From the NCBI GenBank assembly GCA_002205965.3, contig NADL03000748.1, forward strand, positions 2,232,001 through 2,296,000: a DNA stretch of 64,000 nt, written 5' to 3'. The stretch comes from Kappaphycus alvarezii (Eukaryota > Rhodophyta > Florideophyceae > Gigartinales > Solieriaceae). The notes beneath the pieces were generated by a model. It was not told the DNA's origin, did no database searches, and was given only the letters and a program-made list of their open reading frames with translations. Position 1 is the stretch's first letter. Every line of letters begins with the position of its first letter. The position numbers were made by a program, and so were the translations under genes. Positions 5,338 to 29,011 of this stretch are shown here, piece by piece.

Positions 5338-5803
5338 TGCTTCGATTAATTTGGAATGCGGGAGGCGCTTGGGCGAAGTACTATACACGCCTGGAGAGAA
5401 CGGGGGAAGCTCAAGGGTTACGAGAAGAAAACAACGGCAAGAGAATTTGTCGGAGGGTTGGAAGGTTTGGAGGTGCGAGGGCCGAGATATCGGTGGCAAA
5501 CAAATACTGTTTCGTACCTCGTTCGCACTGTATGCTACCCAACACCCTAACGTAGCACACATGTCTGCTTCAAGAAACTTCGATGGTACTGTACTGTAGC
5601 TCTTTTATTCCGACACTAAGCAATGCGGTATATAACACCCCTAGCGAGGGGAAAGTAGAGAGAAGAAAAGGATACAACAATATCAGCACTTTTCCAAACT
5701 CTGGCATCCCTCCACCTCCTTTCTACGATCACTACCACTCCTTCCTCCGCGTCACGCTCCCTTCCCGCAACTCGCGCGAGACCCAACACTCGCGCCCTCA
5801 ACA
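5338..5803 (+). repeat. Outer gypsy 5' LTR
   Basis: The sequence starts TG and ends CA. From 5351 it matches 23561-24014 over about 453 bp; the first 13 bases align only loosely. It contains a TATATAA box at about 5631-5637 followed by CCCCTAGCGAGGGG and a CT-rich 3' part, a plausible promoter layout. A GTACTGTAC palindrome lies at about 5586-5594. Confidence 0.85.
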
Positions 5804-6013: not shown

Positions 6014-6531
6014 TTGCCAGAAGAAAAGACTATGACGTTGTCAAGGCGCGACGCTGGAGAAGTCCGGAAAATTTGTCAGCCACATGAAGCTATTCGGCGC
6101 ACAATGGATGCAAGACTCGATACGGCTAGACTTACTGAATCGATAAGGAAAATGGACTCGTTCCTCGCGAAAACGAATTTCAATAAGAAGGAAATTTCAG
6201 CATTCTACATAAAGCCGCTATGGAACACTAGGAACTAGTCCCGTATATCATCTACCGCAGTCCGAGGGACTAATAGTCGATGAAGTCCATTATAGCCGAT
6301 AATGATGAAGGTAAGAAGGCGTTCGAGTCGCAAAAGTTCGCGAACTCTTCGCCTATAGCCGACCCCATAATGGGAGCTGGTGCAAGTTTAGTCCCCGACG
6401 AGGGAAAACCAGGACCGTCAAATCCGGTCATTACCGTTGAGAAAAAGGCACAGCGGCTGTTGATTCGTACTGACTCCCGGTACCAGAAGCAGAAGAAAAT
6501 GTGTGTAGCTTGGTTACAGCTTTCGAAGACC
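6014..6531 (+). pseudogene. Outer gypsy gag, 5' part
   Basis: Two overlapping-frame ORFs (6014-6238, 6280-6531) are charged, Lys/Glu-rich and without a recognisable domain. They are placed in gag because they lie between the primer-binding site and the zinc-knuckle segment that resumes at 17891. Reading is cut at 6531 by the inner gypsy; the last five bases, AGACC, are its target duplication. The capsid region seems shortened compared with usual Ty3/gypsy Gag. Confidence 0.5.
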
Positions 6532-7496
6532 TGTGGTGTAAGGCGGTACGAAGGTGTGCGTCGCCGCCGATAGCGCGCAGTGAAGGAAATGATGGAAGCT
6601 ATTCGGAAATGACATGGTTTACTTTTTTGGATGATACTATTCACTAATCGACGCGGGCCAAGGCCAGGCTAATACCGCATGTCGCAGCACAGTAATCAGG
6701 CTACCTGCTGTATGTACACATGGCTTACACCTGGCTAACAAGTTTTGCACTTACGGAGTGCAATGTACACTACACGGACAGGATGTGCAGGTGGCAGTGT
6801 TGCATGGGTGGTCACACTAGATATTCTTGCATAGAGCGTGGCCCTCCGTGGCACTCATTACTGAATGTAGAGCACAGAGCGCCCTGACACTGGATACTTT
6901 GTGGATATTTGTATGAGGTGGCTTCCCAACCACAAGCCTATGGAATCGCTGATTTTCGTATCAATAAGCTATTTCGCTGAAGCAGTGCAAGTTGTACTAA
7001 TAGAACTAGTAGCCAGCCAGTTGCTTCAATTTTAAATGGAACCGTCGGAGGCTCCGAACTACTCTCTTTTTGGAAGTGAGAAGCACGATCGAGTGACCCC
7101 CTGTTTCCCGGCGAAGCCGACGCGCGTGCGTTTGCGAACCGACTCAGGCTAGGCGTCCTCTTTCACTCCGGCGCGTTCCCGCGTCCCCCCCCTACCACCA
7201 CCCTCTACCGAAATCTAGGCCCCTTCAGCTGCGCAAACCTACTGCGTACAGGAGACCCACGATTCCAGGAACTTTTACAAGGCTCACCCCTTGGGCGCCA
7301 CTTCGGTTGCGCTTGAATTGTAGCATACGACCTTCACCCCTCTCCCCTTTCTTCGCCCTCCGCGTTGTTGTTGTTGTTGTTGTTGGTTCCCCTTTTTTGT
7401 TGGTCGTTTCCAATCTAATTTCTGTTCCAAAGCCAGACTCTAATCGCCCTACATCCTCTGGTCTACCGGCCGGACCCGAACCCAGATTGCACTACA
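6532..7496 (+). repeat. Inner gypsy 5' LTR
   Basis: It begins TGTGGTG and ends GCACTACA (TG...CA). A GTT microsatellite lies at about 7363-7385. It matches 16934-17885 along its full length, with an unusual number of one- to three-base length differences. The choice of 7496 as the end rests on the AGACC duplication found after the other copy. Confidence 0.88.
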
Positions 7497-7960
7497 TTTT
7501 CTGATCTCCCGACCTAGAATCGGGTGGGACTCCAGGTGGCTTTCGGGTCCCTCTTTTCAACTCTCCGACTCGAGCGAGTCACCCGCCTTTGTTCAAGCGA
7601 AGTACTTGGAAGTTAAGCTGGTCAAGGCATCGTTGCTTGTATTCTTGTCATTGTTTGTCATCGTCGTTACTGTTGTTACTGTTTGTTCCGCCGTTGATCG
7701 AGTGAAGTACTAGGCAGTTAAGCTGGTCAAGGCATCGTTGCTTGTTCTCGCTGTTATCATTTTTATTGTTTGTTTCTTGATTCGTTTTATCTGTTTGGCT
7801 TTTTGTTTAAGTATGTCGAGCCGTCAATCGGGAAGAAGCAGGTCGAGTGGGCCCTCTCGAGCGTTGCGCTCAAATTCAAGATTAAGTCCTGGATAGAGGC
7901 AATATTTGGCAATCGATCTTCCGCAAGAGCTGAAGGTTCGCAAGACACAGAAAATCTCGT
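7497..7960 (+). other. Inner gypsy leader with a tandem 5S-like repeat
   Basis: No clear primer-binding site abuts the LTR; TGGGACTCCAGG at 7525-7536 is a possible displaced one. Two copies of a roughly 43-bp unit (7598-7640 and 7701-7745) share AGTTAAGCTGGTCAAGGC. AAGTTAAGC resembles the A-box core of 5S rRNA genes. No coding signal is seen. Confidence 0.4.
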
Positions 7961-8552
7961 GTGCAAGATGGTGAATCGGCCATGTCCGCGCCAAGCGCCA
8001 GACCTTCGAGCTCGCAGGCATTTCCCCGCGAACGCACACTTTCCGAAAACCTGGAAGCGGCAACGGCATACAAAAGTCAGATCCTTTCAGAAGGTCAAGG
8101 CAGTACGGAGGTTCGGATGGCTACGGAACACCGTCAAGTGGTGGAGCGAGCCATGGTGCAAGCTACCCAAGAAGTTGCTCGCTTGCCCGGCAGGAGGAAG
8201 GGACTCAAGGACGCACCGGTGATGCCCCAGTCGTATCATCCCAGCAGCCGCAAGGAGTTCAAGGGACATCCGGGCCAACTGGGTTTACCCACTCGGGGGT
8301 GATCTTCTAATGTCAAGGTTCAACTCTGAAAAGTCCGGGCCCTGGACTTCAGACAGGGTCACATTCGTCAGTACCCAACCGCAGTCCGCCCAAGCGACGA
8401 CTGTCGCCGTTTCTCAAGCAACTCCGCAGTTACCGATTCCATCGGGACCTTCAGGAAGTTCTCCCGATTTAAGAGAACCTAATCCGGATTCAATGCGTTC
8501 GTCACAAGTACAGGCTACAGCGAGTATTGGCAACCAACAGGGCCACGGCTAG
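7961..8552 (+). pseudogene. Inner gypsy gag remnant
   Basis: Two consecutive ORFs (7961-8302, 8310-8552) encode Ser/Pro/Gln-rich, disordered sequence with a short helical, charged piece. No capsid core and no CCHC knuckle can be found before the protease starts at about 8884. Much of Gag therefore appears deleted or unrecognisable. Assignment to gag is by position only. Confidence 0.45.
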
Positions 8553-8883
8553 ACCTTAACGGGTCTGACACACTTATACCGCATAGTCAACCGCAAGTGG
8601 TACAAGTTCTACCGACTTCGGCAGGAGCGCCGACGCCCCCGTCGAGTTGCTGGACGCAAGGGATAGTACCGCCGCCGTCGCCAGTGGCGCCGATTACCGT
8701 GGAGGCCCTTCACAGGCTGTGAGGGTAACCTGGACGGAAGAACCGGGATGAACGAGCATCAGAGGCCAAGTTACGCGTGCATACGCGGGGAGACAGAGGT
8801 CACCATGGAGGAGTGCCTCACGTAAGGAGACCCTCCGCCGACCATTTTCAAAATACACTCCACCCCATCTTAGGGAGCTCTGC

Positions 8884-9306
8884 TTGTTAATGCACAAACT
8901 TATCTACAAGGCATACGCCGAGATTGGACTCACCATTACCGCAACAGCACGTTGCTTGACTGTGCTGGACACTGGGGCAGGTCCAAAATTTGTGCACCAG
9001 AGCTTATTTCCAGAAGAATCGCTCGCTAAATTACGAATGACGGGGTTAACTACCGTTAGAGATGTTAATGATCGATTGATAAGCTCTTTGGGGATCGCAG
9101 CCCTGGTAGTTCGCTTCGGCAACTACAGAGTAAAAGTCGATTTCATTTTCTGTGCAAGTTTAGCAGCGCCCGTGATCCTAGGATGCGATTTCTGTGACAG
9201 GTTCATTGAATGCATCCATCCCCGCTCGCGCAAGGTAGTAATGGATGATGGAATCGAAGTGCCGATTGTACGACGACCTTTGGAACCGGTCAAGGGACTG
9301 AAATAG
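8884..9306 (+). CDS. Inner gypsy aspartic protease domain
   Basis: This 140-codon open frame has VLDTGAGPKFV at about residues 28-38, where DTGA is the catalytic motif, and PVILGCDFCDRF at about residues 97-108, matching the conserved ILGxDF block of retropepsins. Spacing between the two fits the family, and no stop interrupts the domain. It is one of the best-preserved domains of the element. It normally cleaves the Gag-Pol precursor. The frame closes with TAG and the RT starts about 550 bp later in another frame, so it is a surviving module of a dead polyprotein. Confidence 0.75.
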   Translation: MLMHKLIYKAYAEIGLTITATARCLTVLDTGAGPKFVHQSLFPEESLAKLRMTGLTTVRDVNDRLISSLGIAALVVRFGNYRVKVDFIFCASLAAPVILGCDFCDRFIECIHPRSRKVVMDDGIEVPIVRRPLEPVKGLK

Positions 9307-9855
9307 GAACAGAAGGAGATTCAAGAGAGCCTACATGCTCCGAAGTGGACGGGACGCAGCTCGAATAAGATCAAGTCAGCCGAGCGTGTACTGATCCCCG
9401 CAAGGAGTCAGACTTTCGTTCATGCAACAACGCAACGCTTCGGTCCGATCTTAATCGGACCTAATGAACGGACCTTCCACCGACACGGCATAATGGCCGC
9501 CAATGGTGTACACCAAGTTGAATCACTTCAACCTTTCAGTATTCTAGATGCCAACTGCTCTGTAAAAGACTTCCTACTTACCAAAGGAAATGGTATTAGG
9601 AACTGCACTACCGCACCCCTCTTTTGTGATTTCCAGTATGATGCAAATTGCGAAGGTTCTTGGGATGGAACCGCAGGAATCCCACCCACCACTTGTACCC
9701 GAGCCCGTCACATTGGACTCTACTCGTTACATGAGGACAACTAGAGATATACCCAGTGATCAAACCCATCCGGGGGCTCTCATTTTCCTCCTCCCGGAGA
9801 CTATCCGGTACTCTATGCGACCCTCTCTCGAGTTTCGCAGGAGAAACAATACAAG

Positions 9856-10698
9856 ATGGCCGGGTTCATTCAACGTACATTGGACAAGGACACTGCAGAT
9901 AAACCGACCTTGGAGGACGTCAACCCCGAGCATCTGTCTAAGGAATGGCAGGAACGAGTACGAGAAATGCTCATGAAGTTCCCGGAAATGTGGGATGGTA
10001 CGCTCGGAAAGATAAACACAATGGAACACCGCATCGATCTGCAGCCGGATACCAAGCCAATCTGCTCGCAGCCATATCGAGCCGGCCCCAAGCAACGAGC
10101 CGTTGCTCAAGCCGAAATCGATCGCATGCTCTAACTCGGAGTCATCGAACGCGCCACTTCACCCTGGGCGTCACCAGTTGTCTTCGTTCCGAAGAAGGAC
10201 GGAACATTACGGTTTTGAATTGATTATCGCCGCCTAAATACGGCTACAATAAGGGATACTTGTACCATACCAAAGACTGACGAATGCATTGACTCCCTTG
10301 GTCATGCGAACATCATTACAACCTTAGATTGTAACTCAGGTTATTGGCAGATCCCTCTGTGTAAGGGAGGTATGAAAAAGACCGCGTTCACATGTCGTAC
10401 AGGACTCTGTCGCTTCCTAGGGATGCCGTTCGGACTTACTAATGCCCATGCAACGTTCCAACGAGCACTCGATATACTGCTCTCAGGTTATAAGTGGAAA
10501 ACCTGCCTGGTCTACCTAGAAGATGTCATCATCTACTCGAATAACATTGAGGAACATTACAAGCATATGGAGGATATCCTCGCTTGTATGCATCGTGCAG
10601 GTATTACGTTGAAGCTTTCTAAGTGCGACTTCTTCACAAACACAGTCCATTACCTTGGCCACAAGATCCGTCCAGGTCGCCTCGGGACAAGGCAGTAA
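9856..10698 (+). pseudogene. Inner gypsy reverse transcriptase
   Basis: Recognisable blocks are HRIDLQPDTKPICSQPYR, then GVIERATSPWASPVVFVPKK, IDYRRLNTATIRDT, TLDCNSGYWQIPL (first catalytic Asp), FLGMPFGLTNAHATFQRALD and LVYLEDVIIYS. The YxDD catalytic box reads YLED at 10513-10524, so the first Asp of the pair is Glu. A TAA at about 10132 and a TGA at about 10216 interrupt the frame. A frame change near 10690 leads to the connection segment. Ty3/gypsy affiliation is clear from the FGLTNAxATFQ block. Confidence 0.88.
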
Positions 10699-11360
10699 CC
10701 GCCGCTTTGAAGGACGCGAAACACCCTCGCGATAAAACCAAGCTTAAGTCCTTTCTAGGACTTTTTAATGTATATAGACGCTTCGTTCCACGGTTCTCGC
10801 ATATTGCCGGACTACTCAATAAGCTTCTCAAGAAGGAGATGCCTTTTGAGCTATCTCATCTTAGTGAAGGGAAGCCCAAGCGTTCAATACGCTTTTGACC
10901 GCAGTCACTAAACCTCCGGAGCTTGCTCTACCAAAGTTAGGACTTCCCTACTCTGTTACCCCGACGCCAGTGATTATCAAATTGGTTGCGCGCTCTTTCA
11001 GGTCCACGAGGGTGGAGAGCGAAAACCAATTGGCTATTGGAGCCGATCCCTCACCGCTGCGGAGAAGAACTACTCCGTCACGGAGAAGGAATGTTTAGCA
11101 GTTGTTTGGTCACTGCTCACTCTAAGACCATACCTCATGATGGAACACTTCACCGTACACACTGATCATGCTTCGCTCAGATGGCTTCTATCTGTGAGCG
11201 ACCCTTCTGGTCGACTCATGCGCTGGAGATTTCGCTTTAGCGAGTAAGACTTTGATGTGCAGTACAAGAAAGGTATTAAGAACTGCCAAGCGGACACACT
11301 TTCACGCCTAAGGACCGCGGGAGAGACTACAGTGGAAGTCGACACGAAGGTCTCGTGACT
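10640..11360 (+). pseudogene. Inner gypsy RNase H
   Basis: After a connection block (SFLGLFNVYRRFVPRFSHIA) the RNase H reads almost uninterrupted from 10963: DASDYQIGCALFQVHEGGER, SLTAAEKNYSVTEKECLAVV, HTDHASLRWLLSVSD and NCQADTLSRL. These hold the Asp, Glu and Asp catalytic positions. A single TAA at about 11247-11249 lies near the end, after RFRFSE. An upstream TGA near 10896 and a frame change separate it from RT. Confidence 0.87.
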
Positions 11361-11433
11361 CCCCGGCGAAATATTAACTTCTGCACCGGCCCGTTATCAG
11401 ACAATTGAAGATAGTTCGTCCGAGTTATTGCCC

Positions 11434-12101
11434 ATGGGGGGACTGGGTGTTTGTCTACGGACCACCTCAGAAATTACTTTCCGATAATGCAGTTCACTTC
11501 CCGTACATTCATACACATCTATAAGTTGTTAGGGATTGAGAACTTATTCACAACTACTTACCACCCGTAAGCGAATGGAAAAGTAGAGAGGTTCAACCGG
11601 ACCTTACTAGCCGCACTACGGCATTACGTCGCCGACCATCCAAGAGACTGGGACATGTTCCTCGGATCGGTGACGTACGCGTAAAACACGCAACCGCACA
11701 CATCGACGAAGATGGCACCGTTCGAATTGGTCTTGAGCAAGTCGCCACCACCGATGTCGATACAAGCCCGACCTAAGATAGTCGAGGAGCAACCTGGCCC
11801 TTCGAAGTATATGCAGAAGTGGAAGGCTTGGCTTGAGACGCTGATGTCCACTGCCGGTAACGAACTAGCGAAGACACAAGAAAGGTACAAGCTTAACTTC
11901 GATGAACGTATGCACAAGTCAAAAGAAGAAATAGGGCCTGGCTCCTACGTCTTCATCCGTAAGGAACACTTCAGCAAGGAACAACCTAAGCACAAGCTAG
12001 CTCCACTTGCTGATGGTCCGTAGAAGATCGTCGCCGCCGAAGAGAAGACTGTTGTCGCCCACATAGGACGGCAATACGAGCGCATATCCCCTGAAAGGGT
12101 C
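11434..12101 (+). pseudogene. Inner gypsy integrase, N-terminal half missing
   Basis: The sequence enters the core just before the second catalytic Asp (GPPQKLLSDNAVHF, about 11462-11503). It continues with a helix containing the catalytic Glu (ANGKVERFNRTLLAALRHYV, about 11571-11630) and the MAPFELVLS block at 11712. The HHCC zinc domain and first Asp are absent. Only about 90 bp separate the end of RNase H from this point, so a deletion of several hundred bases is inferred. A GPY/F-like C-terminal part (KHKLAPLADGP, then IVAAEEKTVV) follows, broken by a TAG near 12021. Confidence 0.8.
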
Positions 12102-13140
12102 GTGAAAGCCCCGCCACCAGTTTCGGCAAGTGAGAGCGCGTCTACCGCGCCGTCCACGGAAGCAAAAGACGCGCGGAGGCAAACTGAGAATAAAGGCCTG
12201 CCTCCTGAACCGAACGCGGTCCTGGCACCGGTCTCATCACGCACACGTGGAGTTATCACCCGTGCGCCATGGCGCGACGTGTCCACTGAGGGGCTACGCG
12301 CACTACTCCCGAGTAGTACTGCGGAAGCTTACCGGAACGTAGAAGATCTACGCCCAACCATTTTTGTACCCCCAAGTTCGATAGATACTCAGGAACATCC
12401 GGAGGAGGTGGTCAGCAGCACAAAGCCCTATGAGATTCCAGATCAACGTATAGAGATGCACGATCAAGAGGGCCAGGCAGTAGTAGAAGGCCAAGAGATA
12501 GAAGAAGGTGAATATACTCCGCCTAGAATGAAGAATGTCGATGAGCCTCTCTTCGCCCCGATACCGGGAGAGGAATGGCAAGCTATCGCACAGAATGAAG
12601 AGTTTGATGAGGACCCTGGTCAAGTTATCCTCCCTGACGAAGAGGAAGACTCAGCGCCTCGCACTGGATTACGCTGGACGCTAAACCGGAAGGTATGGTA
12701 CGTCGTAGTACTCGACTTCAACGGCAAGCAGCTCAAGTCCCAGCGGGGGAGGAGAACCGCGAGCGTCGCCACCAAACAAGGACCCTTCGACCCCCGAAGG
12801 GCAGAGAGCCCTTCATGAGGAGAACCTAGGGAATCTAGGGAAAACTCCGGTCAAGGCTGCGTCGACGGCAGGTTCTGGATCGCGACGCAAGGCATGTAGA
12901 AGGAAGAGGTAAGGAGGATCATCGCCGATAGCGAATACTATGTAGAAGAATTATTTCAACATACGGACGAGCCGGACGGTACAAGAAAGTATCAAGTCAA
13001 GTGGATTTATCACCCATCGAACCATAATACTTGGGAACCGCCCGAACACATCCCTCACTCACACATTGTACAGTATTACCGTAGATACACCACGCAGGGC
13101 ACGGCTGGCCCATCTGAAGGGATGCCGGAGGACCTCTAGC
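12102..13140 (+). pseudogene. Integrase tail and chromodomain
   Basis: An open frame of 238 codons (12102-12818) encodes an acidic, Pro-rich linker that follows integrase. In a second frame, 12923-13093 encodes a chromodomain: SEYYVEELFQH, RKYQVKWIYHPSNHNTWEPP and HSHIVQYYRRY. It has the family's aromatic positions (Tyr near the start, Trp in VKW, Trp in NTWEP). In chromoviruses this domain guides integration to methylated-histone chromatin. A frameshift near 12820-12900 separates it from the linker. A stop (TAG) lies at about 13138. Confidence 0.85.
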
Positions 13141-13411
13141 CTCTCACAAAACAGAAGACTAGTGAAGAAGTGATCGAAGAGTTCATAGACATGACGTTGG
13201 ATGAAGAGGGACACTCGCTGTCATGAATCAAGTGGTAAGGCGAACCGACGGAGCACAGTACATGGGAACCGGAAAAGCATGTCCCACGCTCCCATATAAT
13301 CCGCTATTGCAAGCGCAAGGATGTTGCAGTACCCTCCGACATCGACGAACCGCAAGTGGGCTAAGCCTCCTTGATATATGTGGTACCGATCCCCTCAATG
13401 ATCAAAACAAC

Positions 13412-15528
13412 TTAACTAACATGATTAACCAAGTCACTAACTCCCTCGGACGAAGTTTCGGGCGAAGTCGGCAGCGGCGCTTCACTAGCTGCCGTGATTG
13501 CGCGTGGACACCCCTCAATTTCCTGTCTCGTAATAGACGCGTCCACAGCCTGAGCGATGATTGCATGAATGAAGGCATGCATCGGTGTCTCCATACTTCT
13601 CCGAGCCCCCTGCTTGTCCTGGGACTCAGCACGCTTTCTCAACTTCGTAGGTTGGACGGGAAAAACTGGGATACTTGCGCGTCGGCGTTGGAGACCTGTA
13701 CCCGCAGGACTCGTCAAGTCCAAGATCTCGACTGCGGGCTCGATTGCGTTTTAAACCGGTGTTTCCAGACAGTGCCCCACATGGGCTTCGATAATGGCGC
13801 GTCCGTCCGTGGATTGCGTCAGAACGGGTACGAGACACCAGCTCCGCGCAAGAAATGACCCACCAAGTCGCGGTAAATGGGGTAACGCATGCCTTCACGG
13901 CACGGGTGAAGCGATCGAGAGCTATCTGGAGCGCCCGCTCCCGTGTAAGGTCCCCACCCTCGTCCGGACCCATGGGAATCCCTGCAACGAGAAGGTACTC
14001 GCGCACAGCCCGGAGGAATACTGACTCCGGAAGCGGTGGATGCTGGCGGTATTGGCTATCGTTCAGCCGGAAAGGGACCACCAACCGATCGCGATCTGCG
14101 TCCGTACTCTCTCCAACGACATCTATGGACCTTCCGCGTTGGCTGTTGCACGAACCAGTGGGCAGAGCAGCGGAACCCACAAGATGACGGCCACGGCAGA
14201 TGAGACTGTCTTGCGTGGGACGGTTGGACACCGGAGCTGGAGAGCAGCCGCAGTCGTTGCTGTCAAAGGATCACTGTCACCTCCCCTTCACGCACGATGA
14301 CGTATCCACAAGGGTGTCCCATTGGTATTGCAGGCGGTACCGAGCAGAAGTCCTCAGTCTCGTGAGGCCGGGCGCAGACACGCGTCCAGGGGTCAGCAAA
14401 GATAAAGTACCCACAGTGAAGGATGACGACCAACGAACTTCGGATCTACGCACTCATGATCCACCCTGCGGTTCCACTCCGGCAGGACCTGGTTAGCATC
14501 ATCCCAGTTGATGTCCGCTGCGAAGCCCAGCCAGAAAGTCAGCTCGTGAACGTTATCCGGCCTCCCAAGGGCCTGACCAGCTGCTCCTTCATATCCCCGA
14601 TTATGCGGAGGACCAAGGGAGGCAAGCACCAGACGCGGCCTTAAGAGAATATCTCCCACAAGAACGCGGCCGCAACGCTAGCTGCCCATCCTGCATAGAA
14701 CACCGCCCAATAGGGTGTACCGTAGATGCGAGCGAACTCTGTGCAGCGATAGGAAATGAATAGCCGGGAGAAGGGCAAGGAAGCCGTCGGGCACTTCGAG
14801 ACGATGCCAATCAGGGCAGGGACGGCATAGAGGTTGGAAAGTTCATCGGAGCGACGGCCAGACCTCCTGTCGCTCATACGGGAGAGGTAGCCAAAGCGCT
14901 TCCGCATGCGCCGCTCCACACGGGCTAGCTCCAGCTCGCTGCTGTGAGCGTGGGTTGCTGGACTTATAGCGCGGTGACGCGGGAGGTAACGAACTCAGCC
15001 GGAGGAGTACCCCGGCAATCATGTCACTGGGATCCAACTGAAGAGGATCCGATTTCGTTGCACAGCGTTCTGCACTTGGTTCGCAACCATCCAAGTCATC
15101 AACGGTCACAGTAGGTGTCGTCGTCCGGACGCCGATAGAAGACGCACGCCACATCGATGTTCTCCGGAATGATCCGACGCCCTCGTTGCCGACGGAACTG
15201 ACGGCCAACCTGTTGAACATGCGTACACATGGCACGTTCCAGGTCTTCGCACGACCACGCATCGACCGCGGTTAGGTTTCAGCAGTGTGGGGTTGATCGC
15301 GCCGTACATGCGCCATTCGCGGCGGTTGACTGCCGACAGCGGCAAGCCTCCAGGTAGCATTCCATCGACAGCGAAGCGTGCACACTCCTGAGTATCGCTG
15401 ACAGCTAGGTGATGCCACAGGGAGCGGGAGGAACAGATATGGATGATCAAGGGGTGTACGCCCCTCGAAATCGGTAAGGTTGAGGCGACCTGGATCGGTG
15501 GGTTGCGCGTAGCGTTCATCGTCAGCAC
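13412..15528 (-). pseudogene. Antisense gene of unknown function inside inner gypsy
   Basis: Minus-strand reading of about 2.1 kb lies between the chromodomain and the 3' LTR. ORF pieces follow in order 15528-15106, 15262-14843, 14919-14641, 14659-14393, 14231-13626 and 13723-13412, each 86-200 codons, in shifting frames as expected of a decayed single gene. Distinct segments include HPLIIHICSSRSLWHHLAVS near the start, a hydrophobic stretch IYGTPYWAVFYAGWAASVAA (a possible membrane helix) and FLRAVREYLLVAGIPMGPDE. I recognise no family. Start at 15528 is chosen because a CT-rich leader lies just upstream. Chance antisense openness in GC-rich DNA is the main alternative. Confidence 0.5.
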
Positions 15529-15699
15529 GTTTCAACGGTTTCCAGTGAGTAGACTGGCGCGAATCGGCCTGCGGACCAGCGACAGCTGCGAGGCGACGAG
15601 AGAAGTACCGATCGCGACGAGGATTGTCGTCGAACGGAGGATCACCTGCCCGGTGAGGACGCCAGGGCGCTCGACGCTCACCATTTTACTCGGTCAACG

Positions 15700-16160
15700 A
15701 AGATCGGAGCGCCGCACAAGGGCTAAAAGCTGCGCGAGGCAAAGAGAACGCCCAGCCGAACCGGAAGAAGAGGTGGGGAAGGACGAGAAAGGGCAGCGAA
15801 GAGTCGGAGAATGGAGGAGGGAGAAGGGATGGACAAAGAGTGAGAAGCGAAGGAAGGAAGAGGACTGGGTGAAGAATGGGAAAGAGAAGAGAGGGAGAGG
15901 GTGAAGAAGGCGTTGGCGAGGGAGGAATGGGGGAATGGAAAGTGAAACGAAGCCGAACATGAGACATGGAAGAAATTGCAAGTTGGTGCGACCACCAACC
16001 GCAAAAATGCAACTCGGCTTACAATGCGTGGAATCCGAGCGGGGCCCACGAGCTCACTCCACACCCGTGCACTCGCCCTGACGGCCAATCAGAACACGTT
16101 GCGTGTCTTTTTGATTTTATTTTTGGCGCCCCCTGTGGAACCTCGTGACCCCCGAGGTAC
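15700..16160 (-). promoter_or_regulatory. CT-rich leader and AT-rich core upstream of the antisense gene
   Basis: Read on the minus strand, 15915-15715 is an almost uninterrupted CT-rich tract. Further upstream, about 16130-16100, lies CCAAAAATAAAATCAAAA, a TATA-like core. The same architecture (TATA, CT-rich tract, ATG) occurs at 36490-36850 in front of another ORF. This supports transcription of the antisense gene from its own promoter but is inference only. Confidence 0.4.
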
Positions 16161-16933
16161 AAGCCCGAAATTATTTTGGAATTTCAGGACACGTGCAGAC
16201 CCGACACGGTCACCCTTGTACTGTGCCACGAAACCATCCTCCACCCTCGAGACCCTACACAAGGCTTTGGTGCGTGCCATTTATTTTGTCGGAAGAGTAC
16301 CTACGCGACACACACACACTACCTACGGGCCCCTACCCCGACTTTACCCAATGCGGTGTGCGTTACCGCCTCTCCCTCTCGTGGCGTTGGGACACAACGA
16401 AAAAGGCCACGAACCACAAGCTCTTCCGTTATTTATGGTTGACACCGCGACCCACAACAACCGCAAAATACAGACTGAGGAAAGCCAAATGTGGTCTGTC
16501 ATCGTACATCTGGTACGCACCCCCTCCCCCAAAGTATGGACAAGGGAAATTCGACACGTCCTTCTCTCGACGCACTACAAGGACGTATCCCTTGGCACCT
16601 ACAGTCAGCTGGGGCGATTCAGCCTGATTCGCACCTACGACCCGGGCGCCCCCGCACCGTGCCCCTCCCCCACCTACTAACCAGACACACAGAGGCCACC
16701 GTGGCAGCTCAAAGGCCAAGTCCTCCCCGCCGCTCTTACATGGGACCGACTCACGATCATGAATTGTCACTAAAACGATGACTTTTAATTCGGAATGGGG
16801 CGTCACAATGAACGCAATCGGGTAGCGTCACTACCATGTCGGCATCCCTACCGCGCGTCAACCACTGTCTCCCAGTCCCAACACACCCGGCCGGCTGATC
16901 CACGCGCTCGATCTGCGAGCGACGGGGAGGCTG
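16161..16933. other. 3' part of inner gypsy before LTR
   Basis: A plus-strand open frame (15976-16680, 234 codons) crosses this stretch but has no recognisable domain and a composition expected from GC/AC-rich DNA. I do not call it a gene. ACGGGGAGG just before the 3' LTR (about 16922-16930) is a weak polypurine-tract candidate. Confidence 0.35.
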
Positions 16934-17885
16934 TGTGGTGCAAGGCGATACGCAGGTGTGCCGCCGCCGATAGCGCGCAGTGAAGGAAATGAGAAGCTAT
17001 TCGGGATTGATATGGTTTACTTTTTTTGGATGATACTATTCACTAATCGACGCGGGCCAAGGCCAGGCTAATACCGCATGTCGCAGCACAGTAATCAGGC
17101 TACCTGCTGTATGTACACATGGCTTACACTGGCTAACAAGTTTTGCACTTACAGAGTGCAATGTACACTACACGGACAGGATGTGCAGGTGGCAGTGTTG
17201 CATGGTGTCACACTAATATTCTTGCATAGAGCGTGGCCCTCCGTGGCACTCATTACTGAATGTAGAGCACAGCGCCCTGACACTGGTACTTTGTTGATAT
17301 TTGTATGAGGTGGCTTCCCAACCACAACTATGGAATCGCTGATTTTCGTATCAATAGCTATTTCGCTGAAGCAGTGCAAGTTGTACTAGTAGAACTAGTA
17401 GCCAGCCAGTTGCTTCAATTTTAAATGGAACCGTCGGAGGCTCCGAACTACTCTCTTTTTGAAGTGAGAAGCACGATCGAGTGACCCCTGTTTCCCGGGC
17501 GAAGCCGACGCGCGTGCGTTTGCGAACCGACTCAGGCTAAGCGTCTCTTTCACTCCGGCGCGTCCAGTCCCCCCGTACCACCACCTCTCTAACGAAATCC
17601 AGGCCCCTTCAGCTGCGCGCAAACCTACTACGTACAGGAGACCACGATTCCAGGAACTTTTACAAGGCTCACCCCTTGGGCGCCACTTCGGTTGCGCTTG
17701 AATTGTAGCATACGACCTCACCCTCTTCCCCTTTCTTCGCCCTCCGCGTTGTTGTTGGTTGTTTTGTTGTTGGTTCCCCTTTTTTGTTGGTCGTTTCCAA
17801 TCTAATTTCTGGTGTTCCAAAGCAGACTCTAATCGCCCTACATCCTCTGGTCTACCGGCCGGATCCGAACCCGGATTGCACTTAA
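16934..17885 (+). repeat. Inner gypsy 3' LTR
   Basis: It begins TGTGGTGCAAGGCG, matching the 5' copy. Its last five bases (CTTAA) align with CTACA of the 5' copy, so the CA end is mutated. The AGACC duplication follows directly at 17886-17890. Confidence 0.88.
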
Positions 17886-17890
17886 AGACC

Positions 17891-19382: not shown

Positions 19383-20194
19383 GATAAAACACTCTTTCGG
19401 GCTTACGGACGCCAAGCCCATCTATCATACGGATCGCCGCCTACCTCCGACCCAAAACCAACTGGTAAGAGAGGAATTGGATAAGATTCTTGATGCCGCA
19501 TAATTAGGCCCGCATCGTCCGCGTGGTCCTTTTCGGTAGTCATAGCTACTAAAAAGGACGGGTAATCCCGCTTCTGTGTCGATTAACGGATGCTTAATCA
19601 GAAGATGAAAGGGACCGTTGACCCCTCCCTAAGATAGACGATATATTAGAAGCCCTTTGCGGCGCGACGGTATTCACATCTTTAGACCTGTTTAGTGGAT
19701 ACTAGTAGGTCCGTCTAGAAGATTCCTGCAAAGAGAAGACGAAATTTGTGTGCCTTTTCGGCACTTATCAGTTCAACGTCATGCCTTTTGGACTCATGAA
19801 CGCGCCATCGAACTTTCCAGCGAATGTTGGACCATGTGCTAGCAGATATGGACTTTGCTCGCGTTTATCTGGACTATGTCGTGGTCTTTTCGAGTAATTT
19901 GGAGGAACATTTGGAGCACGTTTCGGCGGTCACAAGCGCCTTTGCCAAGTACAAGTGGGAGGTCAAGGTGGCCAAATGCTACCTTGTGCAAAGGCAGATA
20001 GGTCTATTGGGTCACCTTGTTGACGAGCGGGGGGTTCGTGTGGACCTGATGAAAGTAGGTGCGATTCCATCCATTATAATTCCCTTGAAAGTCACGCACG
20101 TATGCACTTTCCTAGGGTTGGCAGGATACTATAGGAGATACATTAAGAATTTCGTGGGGAAGGCAGCTGTCTTACAAGCCGTGACCTCGAAATG
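19383..20194 (+). pseudogene. Outer gypsy reverse transcriptase
   Basis: Blocks in order are HSFGLTDAKPIYHTDRRLPP, a KILDAA entry, SFSVVIATKKDG, KIDDILEALCGATVFTSLDL (first catalytic Asp), KFVCLFGTYQFNVMPFGLMN and VYLDYVVVFSSNLEEHLEHV. The catalytic box is YLDY (about 19866-19877) instead of YLDD. The connection segment FLGLAGYYRRYIKNF closes the domain near 20157. Stops around 19501 and several frame changes break it. Confidence 0.85.
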
Positions 20195-20720
20195 AAAAAA
20201 AGTTCGCATGGAAGACGTGGAAGAGGAGGCGTCTCGCAGGCTAAAGGAAGCTTTGATATCCCACCTGTTCTAGCATTTGCTGACCTTGAAAGATCGTTTA
20301 TCGTCGAGACTGATGCTTCTTCCACGGCTGTAGGCGCTGTTTTGTCACAGAGGCAGTCGGAAGGCAAAATACACCCGGTCTTATACGCCAGCAGGTCGAT
20401 GAACCCGGCGGAGAAGCGTTACTCAGCCTGCGAGAGAGAATCATTGGAAGCCGTTTTTTGGACTACGAAAGTTTCGTGTTTCCCTTTTATCAAGTCACCC
20501 TTTAGAGCTTATTACCGACCATCAGTGGCTAAAGGACGCCTTTGTGCGCAAATCACATACCGAACGCTAGCCCGTTGGCTCGACTCTCTTGCGGAATACG
20601 TCTATGTCATTCTTTATCGGCCGAGAACGATGAATAGTGTTGCGGATAGGTTATTTAGACTGCCAGTAGAAGTCGAGGTCGGCACTGAGCACGGTGACGG
20701 GGACCTCCTACTATCATTGA
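20192..20720 (+). pseudogene. Outer gypsy RNase H
   Basis: One open frame contains FIVETDASSTAVGAVLSQRQ (first catalytic Asp), SMNPAEKRYSACERESLEAV (catalytic Glu) and a degenerate third block before LARWLDSLAEYVYVILYRP and NSVADRLFRLP. Order and spacing fit Ty3/gypsy RNase H. The TDH block that holds the third acidic residue is not preserved. The frame runs on into 20857 as a linker to integrase. Confidence 0.82.
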
Positions 20721-20859
20721 AGGGCCCCTCCGAGGAAATAGGAGGCGCAGATCTAGAACTGCATCTCACACTGGTTCTCAGGTACCAGTCTGTGAGTGAT
20801 AAATCCTACGCCACGCCGAAAGAGCGGTTGAAGGCTAGGAGGGAAGCCAATTCTTAATG

Positions 20860-23550: not shown

Positions 23551-24014
23551 TGTGGACGATTTGGAATGCGGGAGGCGCTTGGGCGAAGTACTGTACTCTC
23601 CTGGAGAGAACGGGAAACACTCAAGGGTTACGAGAAGAAAACAGCGGCAAGGGAATTAGCCGGAGGGTTGGAAGGGTCGGAGGTGCGGGGGCAGAGATAT
23701 CTGTGGCACACAAGTACTGTTTCGTACCTCGCTCACACTGTATGCCAACCGACACCCTAACGTAGCACACGTATCTGCTTCTAGAAACTTCGATGGTAGT
23801 GTACTGTAGCTCTTTTATTCTGATACTGTACAGTGCGGTACATGACACCCCTAGCGAGGGGGAGCGTGGAGAGAAGAAAGATCACAACAACATCAGCACT
23901 TTTCCAAAATCTGGCATCCCTCCCACCCCCTTTCTCCGATCACTACCAATACTTCCTCCGCATCACGCTCCCTTCCCGCAACTCGCGCGCGACTCTACAC
24001 TCGCGCCTTTAACA
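23551..24014 (+). repeat. Outer gypsy 3' LTR
   Basis: It starts TGTGGACG and ends AACA. A purine-rich run TGGGGAGGAAATGG (about 23534-23547) lies just upstream as a likely polypurine tract. The TATA box of the 5' copy reads TACATGA here. Confidence 0.85.
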
Positions 24015-27065: not shown

Positions 27066-28719
27066 ACGTCCAAGCAGCGCTTTTGAACGCCTCAAATTAG
27101 TCGAAGAGGTACTGCCCGTCCATTTTCTGCCACTTTTCTACGATCGCCTCTTTCAGCTCCTAAAAATTCCCAAATTTCCTCAAATCCTTATAAACGCCCG
27201 TCACTAACACGCCCTATACATTTTCAATAGGAATCAGATCGGGACTCCTAGTAGGCCAAGGCATAAAATCGATGACATGATTCGAAGTCTATGATCTAGT
27301 GTGGTATAGTGAGTGAAGTGACCGCACGGTGAGTGGGATGGCTGAATTTATAATGATCCGAGGGAGGATCACCCGGCCGTTCGGTTGTTTGGCGATGCAC
27401 GCGTTGACCCGCTCGGGGACCACGTGGCAAAGGTGAGGGCGTACAGCAGTGTACACCGCGCCGGGGTGAGGAATCCGTAAGGTAATTACAGGACTGTGGA
27501 GAGTACAGTAGGGTATAATTTAGTAGTGCGTATGATAATTAGTAGAAATTGACACCTGTATGCACGGGACCATTAGGGTCTAGTGCCAGGTCCAATAGGA
27601 CTCCGTACGGACTTCACAGATATTTAATTGTGATCTCCTTTACGGTGCCCGTCAAGTAAAGAGGTAAGCACCCTTCCACCTTGGAGTTCCCTGTTTTACT
27701 TTTACCTTTTCCTTTACCGCTCGGTTACTCCTTGTTTTACTAGTCCCTCTCTGGCCTGTATCGCGCCGTCACCGTCTCCGCGTATTTCCCCCAACCGCGG
27801 CACGGTTAGCTCGTCCGAGAGTGAGCCAGCCTCTGTCTTGTGTTTCCCTTGTTATTCCGTTCGGTGGTCCCTCGCTGGTCGCAGACCTACCTAACGCTCT
27901 ACCAATCTACCGAGGTCCTTCCCTTTCCCGAACGGAGACGTCCGTTAGGTAAGAGAGAAGTGAACCCTAACGGTTTTATACCTCATCTAGTAACACCTGC
28001 AGTGTGAATGGGCGCATTTTCCTCCTGCAAACAGCCAACGTAAGATGATGGGTGCCGATAAGTGGTAGTAGAAACTCTTCAAGTGTCTTCACGTACTTCG
28101 ATGCGTTCTGTTTTCCTGTCAATAAAGCAATAGCGGACTGAATTTTTTCACTGCATGCTACCCAAATCATTACTGAACCATCTCCCATCTGACGAAGAGA
28201 AAACACGTGCTATTCCTTTCGTAGGTCGTTCCAATAGTTCTGAATACCATCAGGGCCGTCTAAATTGAATTTCTTCTCATTCAAAAAGATAACACAGCCT
28301 CATTCACGCATGGTCCAAGTTGCCATTTGGCGGCCCCATGGCAACCAGGTCTGACAATGAAATGGAGACAATTGAGGGGCGCGTTTAACCTTTTTATACT
28401 GCAAGTTTGGTTCCACCGAAGGAATTTGTTGAGTACGACGCTTTGATATCGGGAGAGAGAGCGCGCGTCGCATTTCACCTACGGATTTTCCGCTGTCTGA
28501 AGCAGAACAGACTAGTCGTCTTGTGTCCCTGGAAGTAATTTTTGGAGGATTTCCGTCCTTTTTCTTGTCGTTGTAGGTCACAGGGGATTTTAAGAAGGTT
28601 TGCACTGCTTTTCGAGACTTCCATAAGCAGCGAGCTATCTCAAATTGAGGCAATTTCTCCTCTCGCCAGGCCAAAATCTTTCCCTGCTCGACTTCGGTCA
28701 GCTTTTTGCAAAGAGGCAT
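27066..28719 (-). pseudogene. Mariner transposase, interrupted
   Basis: The start Met at 28719 opens MPLCKKLTEVEQGKILAWRE, an N-terminal helix-turn-helix DNA-binding region, followed by GNPPKITSRDTRRLVCSASD (second HTH-type half). The central part reads FSLRQMGDGSVMIWVACSEK. QEENAPIHTAGVTRS then lies directly against the solo LTR. On its far side TSNHVIDFMPWPTRSPDLIP and IEN continue in the same frame; PDLxPIEN is the mariner C-terminal catalytic block. The second catalytic residue appears as Glu (QEEN for QxDN). Stops include TAG where the family has Trp (IENVWG). Confidence 0.88.
27300..27985. mobile_element. Solo LTR (686 bp) in the mariner transposase
   Basis: It begins TGTGGTATA and ends TATACCTCA, an imperfect inverted pair with TG...CA ends. 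It is flanked by the exact 5-bp duplication TCTAG (27295-27299, 27986-27990). Removing the LTR and one TCTAG joins the mariner reading in frame. No internal retroelement sequence remains, so it arose by LTR-LTR recombination. No relative with internal sequence is seen in this window. Confidence 0.9.
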
Positions 28720-28823
28720 TGTGGATGGCCTAGGATAGTCAGGGACAGTTGTAGACTCGGAGACAGGCAGGTTTCCATTTATTGTCGAGAATTTGCCTTG
28801 TTTTTGGCCATGTGCTCTATAGG

Positions 28824-29011
28824 TTTTGCTCCCTCCCAGGTAGCCGTGTTATAAAAAGTTTTAAAAATAATATTCGTTACTCCTTGCAACTTCGTTCCTA
28901 TAAATGATATGTCCAAACAAGGTTTTTGGCCACTTTTGTTTTTAATTTGCCATTTCTTTCAAATATATATTTAAAAAAACCAGGTGTTCTAAAGTTTTTT
29001 CGCGCATTGCA
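28824..29011 (-). repeat. Mariner right inverted repeat
   Basis: This is the reverse complement of 26794-26980. Its outer end is the CGCGCATTGCA at 29001-29011. Confidence 0.88.

What the first reader, a model, noticed from the sequence alone, without database searches (positions are those of the whole stretch)
13412..15528. Long antisense gene behind the chromodomain of the inner gypsy
About 2.1 kb of minus-strand reading, in six successive ORF pieces, sits between the chromodomain and the 3' LTR. It has a CT-rich leader and a TATA-like core at its 5' side (16130-15715 on the minus strand). Antisense ORFs in this position are known in some plant gypsy lineages (Tat/Ogre-type aORFs), but a chromovirus-like element carrying one is unusual and I recognise no family. 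It could encode a chaperone or silencing suppressor for the element, or be captured host sequence.
Basis: partly seen in the sequence, partly recalled or inferred. Interest (0 to 1): 0.75.

Follow-up and report, generated by a model that had tools for sequence, protein, structure and literature searches.

The report
Conserved antisense gene in algal retrotransposons
Behind the chromodomain of this gypsy-type jumping gene lies a real gene on the opposite strand, kept by selection and shared by many related elements in the same alga-like genome, so these elements carry an extra protein of unknown function.

Summary
The antisense gene is real: one long minus-strand frame (about 15684 to 13412), cut up by small indels that may be decay or assembly error. 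Frame length alone is weak evidence. The proof is comparative. Against elements about 34% diverged in DNA, substitutions pile up at third codon positions (247/216/467); pN is 0.29-0.32, pS 0.74-0.77. Only the mirrored sense frame echoes this, and stops close it. One relative has 779 codons with one stop. Pairs within a clade look near neutral. Three searches merge into 135 places in this genome. Of 177 chromodomain places in two capped lists, 75 have the gene within 6 kb, all 75 convergent; 102 have none listed. No Pfam or PDB relative was found. The host is photosynthetic. Antisense accessory genes in this slot are known from plant Grande, RIRE2 and Retand and from fungal Boty (brtn), itself a chromodomain element. 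This is a new variant of a known kind: an apparently new protein family in chromodomain gypsy elements of a probable alga. Transcript, protein, promoter and function are inferred, not shown.

The parts
6527..6531 (.). 5-bp target site duplication AGACC, left
   Evidence: same letters as 17886-17890
6532..7496 (+). 5' LTR
   Evidence: 6532-7493 is 94% identical to 16934-17882 over 973 columns; last bases set by eye
8752..9306 (+). protease region piece (DTGAG motif recalled; no Pfam hit)
   Evidence: 0 Pfam families; 71.5% over 137 aa to the corresponding C820 frame
10219..10698 (+). reverse transcriptase piece
   Evidence: Pfam RVT_1, E 2.5e-27
11378..12020 (+). integrase pieces up to a GPY-like module (module name recalled)
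   Evidence: match the C820 integrase frame, which has Integrase_H2C2 over and rve just under the Pfam cut-off
12900..13139 (+). chromodomain 1
   Evidence: Pfam Chromo, E 2.1e-8
13140..13361 (+). second chromodomain, in two broken pieces
   Evidence: home-made chromodomain profile: 13140-13223 (iE 0.019, weak) and 13239-13361 (iE 3.5e-10); two Chromo stretches in the C11 relative
13412..15684 (-). antisense gene, one frame with several indels; tail-to-tail with pol
15685..15984 (-). pyrimidine-rich leader, possible antisense promoter or 5' UTR
   Evidence: pyrimidine 0.67/0.87/0.80 per 100 nt; function inferred
16934..17885 (+). 3' LTR
17886..17890 (.). 5-bp target site duplication AGACC, right

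Best explanation
An accessory protein gene of a chromodomain gypsy lineage, on the strand opposite gag-pol, tail-to-tail with pol, between the chromodomain and the 3' LTR. The 5' LTR would make the genomic RNA (Gag-Pol); a second promoter in the pyrimidine-rich stretch about 1 kb upstream of the 3' LTR would make an antisense mRNA for a protein of roughly 760 residues in the window clade. Shown: a coding frame, purifying selection on its amino acids between clades, and a shared position in many divergent elements. Inferred: the antisense mRNA, its own promoter, and that the protein acts for the element, most likely as a soluble factor in a replication, nuclear or silencing step, as has been proposed for plant Grande gene23.
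For: Codon test, window against the C461, C11 and C820 copies: substitutions at codon positions 1/2/3 of 247/216/467, 247/216/473, 256/220/484; pN 0.30-0.31, pS 0.75-0.77; in the two between-clade pairs tested in all frames the two shifted antisense frames give dN/dS 1.2-1.7. Six-frame control: 1 stop in 779 codons in C820 against 13-38 in the other five frames; amino-acid identity 0.505-0.538 against at most 0.454-0.480 in any other frame over three pairs. Integrase of the same elements gives dN/dS 0.12-0.15 between clades (three pairs); the one unsaturated antisense pair gives 0.13. Linkage: 75 of 177 chromodomain places and 75 of 135 gene places pair within 6 kb, all 75 convergent, 0 in another orientation; read by eye, five more chromodomain places gain a convergent partner. 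RT identity is 65.6% (C820-C685) and 58.3% (C820-C661) while the antisense protein is about 32%, so the association is old. A pyrimidine-rich leader is seen in both clades: 300 nt in the window clade, but only the last 100-200 nt (0.72-0.76) in the other. No Pfam family in 15 antisense pieces and no PDB relative in two searches.
Against: No RNA or protein evidence. All six copies in the codon test (C744, C12, C519, C461, C11, C820) have a stop or frame break. Synonymous sites are saturated in eight of nine between-clade pairs. One mirrored sense frame gives dN/dS 0.30-0.31 because its third positions face ours; only its stops exclude it. Within-clade pairs give 0.74-0.93 (six pairs) and C661-C691 0.69. 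60 of 135 gene places and 102 of 177 chromodomain places had no partner in the capped lists. The C585 copy has lost about 1.4 kb, most of the gene, with flanks 93-94% alike. No basic nuclear-signal cluster by a simple pattern in five open pieces.
Confidence: 0.78

Rival explanations
1. The antisense transcript itself, not its protein, is the functional product (an RNA that pairs with genomic RNA and tunes silencing); the frame is a relic or by-product.
For: Antisense RNAs with possible regulatory roles are discussed for other elements (PMC7264820). The convergent position would allow RNA pairing.
Against: Selection acts on codon positions and amino acids between clades about 50% identical in protein; an RNA-only role would not give a third-position excess tied to one open frame.
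Confidence: 0.1
2. A host gene captured once by an ancestor and carried along without function for the element.
For: No similarity to known families, so a host origin cannot be excluded; long open frames without a chromodomain partner in the lists exist, such as C510:366051 with 618 aa.
Against: Constraint between clades and the fixed position in dozens of elements speak against a passenger. Of two long open cases read further, C590 sits beside integrase and a chromodomain; C510 showed neither in 2.9 kb, though a chromodomain lies 9.7 kb downstream on the opposite strand.
Confidence: 0.08
3. Chance open frames in G+C-rich sequence.
For: Frame lengths alone are only marginally unusual (61, 107 and 16 of 1000 shuffles).
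Against: Codon pattern, stop counts and a protein-level family are tied to this frame.
Confidence: 0.01
4. An env-like gene.
For: Same slot between pol and 3' LTR as env; one hydrophobic stretch in C820 reaches a 19-residue Kyte-Doolittle mean of 1.62.
Against: Opposite strand; the other four open pieces reach only 0.99-1.23.
Confidence: 0.02

Closest known systems
Boty-like gypsy elements of Botrytis cinerea / Sclerotinia with antisense gene brtn (Zhao et al. 2011; paper not held; seen through passages of PMC8365987 and PMC4227169 and parts 1-2 of 3 of PMC7264820)
   Same: Gypsy element with gag, PR, RT, IN and CHROMO plus an extra antisense gene between pol and the 3' LTR.
   Different: Host is a fungus; here it is photosynthetic.
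Plant antisense aORF-3R genes: Grande gene23, RIRE2, Retand ORF4 (TRP28, PF04195)
   Same: Antisense, between pol and 3' LTR, shared across related elements; Grande gene23 has its own promoter and a nuclear product (PMC7264820 parts 1-2 of 3; PMC11963269 passages).
   Different: Retand is a non-chromovirus lineage with a TRP28 domain; here there is a chromodomain and no Pfam hit.
Chromodomain gypsy lineages of brown algae (Ectocarpus) and oomycetes (Chronos) (PMC12477816, passages)
   Same: Chromodomain in gypsy pol outside plants and fungi.
   Different: The passages read mention no antisense accessory gene in a gypsy element.

Membership tests
Antisense aORF-3R class (as described in PMC7264820) | Between pol and 3' LTR, opposite strand | tested here: met
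   Window anatomy; 75 of 75 paired places convergent
Antisense aORF-3R class (as described in PMC7264820) | Present in most copies, conserved like other element proteins | tested here: inconclusive
   135 places and constraint between clades; 102 of 177 chromodomain places unpaired in capped lists; one deletion copy; pN about 2.5 times that of integrase
Antisense aORF-3R class (as described in PMC7264820) | Own antisense transcript and promoter | not testable with these tools
   No RNA data; only a pyrimidine-rich leader
Retand-type TRP28 aORF | TRP28 domain (PF04195) | tested here: not met
   0 Pfam families at E up to 1 in 15 of 15 antisense pieces: 8 of the window, some partly out of frame, 2 of C820, 5 of distant elements
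Retand-type TRP28 aORF | Non-chromovirus pol | tested here: not met
   Chromo domain at 12900-13139
Boty brtn | Sequence homology to BRTN | not testable with these tools
   Paper not held; no sequence at hand
Ty3/gypsy (Metaviridae) | PR-RT-RNase H-IN order between LTRs with target site duplication | tested here: met
   RT by Pfam in the window; RT, RNase H and integrase by Pfam in relatives; protease by motif only; LTRs and 5-bp TSD
Chromovirus | Chromodomain at the end of pol | tested here: met
Chromovirus | RT falls in the chromovirus clade | not tested
   No named reference RT set at hand; chromodomain gypsies outside that clade exist (PMC12477816)
env-like aORF | Sense orientation and membrane segment | tested here: not met
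   Antisense; KD19 maximum 0.99-1.62 in five open pieces

The most novel reading that the evidence does not exclude
A previously undescribed protein family, held for a long time as an antisense accessory gene in a diverse lineage of algal chromodomain gypsy elements. If it is unrelated to the antisense genes in the same slot in flowering plants and fungi, LTR retrotransposons have repeatedly gained a second, separately controlled gene next to the 3' LTR.
Probability: 0.6. Interest if true: 0.7.

Novelty: new variant of a known kind. Interest (0 to 1): 0.58.

Why it matters
Antisense accessory genes of LTR retrotransposons are known mainly from flowering plants and have no agreed function. A large family with many divergent members in one genome gives the variation needed to find invariant residues, to time gain and loss of the gene, and to ask whether elements with and without it differ in spread. 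It also suggests that annotation of algal elements that looks at one strand only can miss a gene.

Tried and rejected
Spliced gene with introns: rejected; copies align through without introns in the part that was printed, and C820 has 779 codons with one stop. Fungal host: my first assumption, dropped after 22 chlorophyll a/b-binding matches, some on contigs that also carry the antisense gene (C461, C497, C585). Chitin_synth_2 gave 0 matches (its controls are not fungi) and a typed EF-1alpha at best 50% identity (13 matches); neither names the host. Viral contigs: no relative. PDB: two searches, nothing below E 0.68.

Open or against: 60 of 135 gene places had no chromodomain partner in the lists. 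Of these, two C462 places and C713 do have one in their own loci, C590 has one, and C510 one 9.7 kb away; the rest were not settled. The two C462 places pair in the wrong order at 12.7 kb because their own chromodomain was missing from the lists. The profile was seeded with segments of L037 and L040, which match by construction; 10 of 17 distant loci had a chromodomain on the opposite strand in the roughly 1.5 kb of flank, 7 had none.

Full report
What is there. The inner element runs from 6532 to 17885 between 5-bp duplications AGACC. Its LTRs are 94% identical, with 22 mismatches and 24 gap openings in 973 columns. Pol is on the plus strand: protease region 8752-9306 (by motif and relatives, no Pfam hit), RT 10219-10698 (Pfam), integrase pieces to about 12020, chromodomain 12900-13139 (Pfam) and a second, broken chromodomain at 13140-13361. 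On the minus strand, tail-to-tail with pol, lies one frame from a probable ATG near 15684 to a stop at 13412, with a pyrimidine-rich leader at 15685-15984.

Is it more than chance? By length alone, hardly: 61, 107 and 16 of 1000 shuffles reach the three observed length measures. The case rests on relatives. A DNA search of the own genome found the window plus six other places: C12 at 95%, C519 at 92%, a part in C32 at 94%, and C461, C11 and C820 at 66-67%. C11 and C820 carry protease-region, RT, integrase and chromodomain pieces on the opposite strand in the same order. In C461 only integrase and chromodomain pieces were found in the 8.5 kb read; a transposase-like frame lies next to them.

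Coding and selection. In the frame of the C820 copy, window against C461, C11 and C820 shows substitutions at codon positions 1, 2, 3 of 247/216/467, 247/216/473 and 256/220/484. All nine between-clade pairs have pN 0.29-0.32 and pS 0.74-0.77; only one (C519-C461) gave a finite dN/dS, 0.13. In the two between-clade pairs tested in all frames, the shifted antisense frames give dN/dS 1.2-1.7 and two sense frames 1.0-1.8. One mirrored sense frame gives 0.30-0.31, because its third positions face ours. Stops exclude that frame: in C820 the antisense frame has 1 stop in 779 codons, the other five 28, 38, 13, 30 and 20. Over three between-clade pairs amino-acid identity is 0.505-0.538 in our frame (5-8 columns with a stop) against 0.454-0.480 in the mirrored frame (45-54 such columns). 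Within clades dN/dS is 0.74-0.93 (six pairs), and 0.69 for C661-C691: mostly decay after insertion. Integrase of the same elements gives 0.12-0.15 between clades and 0.56-0.84 within (three pairs each), the same pattern. The antisense protein changes faster (pN about 0.31 against 0.12).

How common. Antisense protein queries from C820, C685, C661 and C617 gave 89, 107, 131 and 120 matches, with 84 of 193, 103 of 386, 120 of 424 and 108 of 466 candidates scored. The first three merge into 135 places. Chromodomain queries gave 72 and 150 matches, with 150 of 779 and 150 of 427 candidates scored, merged into 177 places. Of these, 75 have an antisense gene within 6 kb and all 75 are convergent; 102 have none in these lists. 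For the first list alone, 66 by 135 places, chance predicts about 0.3 pairs of any orientation. Read by eye, one search gives five further chromodomain places (C523, C664, C837, C109, C668) a convergent partner. In two distant elements the pol side was read too: both have RT and integrase on the opposite strand. Of two long open antisense frames without a listed partner, C590 has integrase and a chromodomain in place; C510 has neither in the 2.9 kb read, but a chromodomain lies 9.7 kb downstream on the opposite strand. One element, C585, lacks about 1.4 kb, most of the gene, while its flanks are 93-94% like the C661 element.

What the protein is. No Pfam family at E up to 1 in 15 antisense pieces, no PDB relative in two searches. 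In five open pieces there is no basic nuclear cluster; the most hydrophobic stretches reach 0.99-1.62. Six of the eight aligned pieces cover a conserved core with an LGG, a DWD and a GRRHxxCGD-like motif, none strictly invariant. Its biochemical role is unknown. I judge a soluble regulatory or replication factor most likely, by analogy with Grande gene23, which has its own promoter and a nuclear product (PMC7264820, parts 1-2 of 3 read).

Host. The genome has 22 chlorophyll a/b-binding matches, all over the cut-off, no Chitin_synth_2 match and no EF-1alpha match above 50% identity.

Compared with the known. The slot and strand match the antisense aORF class. Retand genes are TRP28 proteins of non-chromovirus elements (PMC11963269, passages); ours fail both features. 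Boty of Botrytis is a gypsy element with CHROMO and the antisense gene brtn (PMC4227169 and PMC8365987, passages; PMC7264820, text), so chromodomain plus antisense gene is not without precedent. A BRTN-like transcript is reported in Monilinia (PMC5987419, passage). Zhao et al. 2011 itself is not held. Chromodomain gypsies outside the chromovirus clade exist in brown algae and oomycetes (PMC12477816, passages), so I do not file the window element as a chromovirus. The listings of searches showed no report of an antisense gene in an algal gypsy element; they cover open-licence PMC papers only, and most listed papers were not opened.

Caution on the broken frame. Copies in the C462 array differ by gaps without mismatches, the mark of residual assembly indels. 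How many of the window's frame breaks are real decay cannot be told here.

Noticed in passing
G000:C462:1400094-1466630 (L038-L042): Five copies of an antisense-gene-bearing element spaced about 14.4 kb (one step 22.7 kb), with 0 mismatches and at most 8 gap columns between copies over about 3.6 kb: looks like a recent tandem array.
   Followed up: partly
L015:1479-2396, L017:2031-2771, window 12900-13361: Two tandem chromodomains at the end of pol in several elements of this lineage.
   Followed up: partly
G000:C585:3399867-3403200 (L061): Element copy with most of the antisense gene missing but flanks 93-94% alike: possible deletion derivative.
   Followed up: partly
window 5349-5648 and 23559-23858: 88% direct repeat outside the inner element, with another gypsy's RNase H at 20147-20857 between: looks like an outer element into which the inner one inserted.
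   Followed up: no
window 28300-28848, minus: Tc3-like transposase helix-turn-helix (Pfam).
   Followed up: no
L013:3306-3968, minus: Transposase-like frame (DDE type by look, recalled) beside the integrase pieces of the C461 element.
   Followed up: no
L060:3189-5799: Long low-complexity open stretch between integrase and chromodomain in the C685 element.
   Followed up: no
C759:701774+ / 707169-, C508:451980+ / 455173-: Pairs of antisense-gene matches on opposite strands 2-4 kb apart, unexplained.
   Followed up: no
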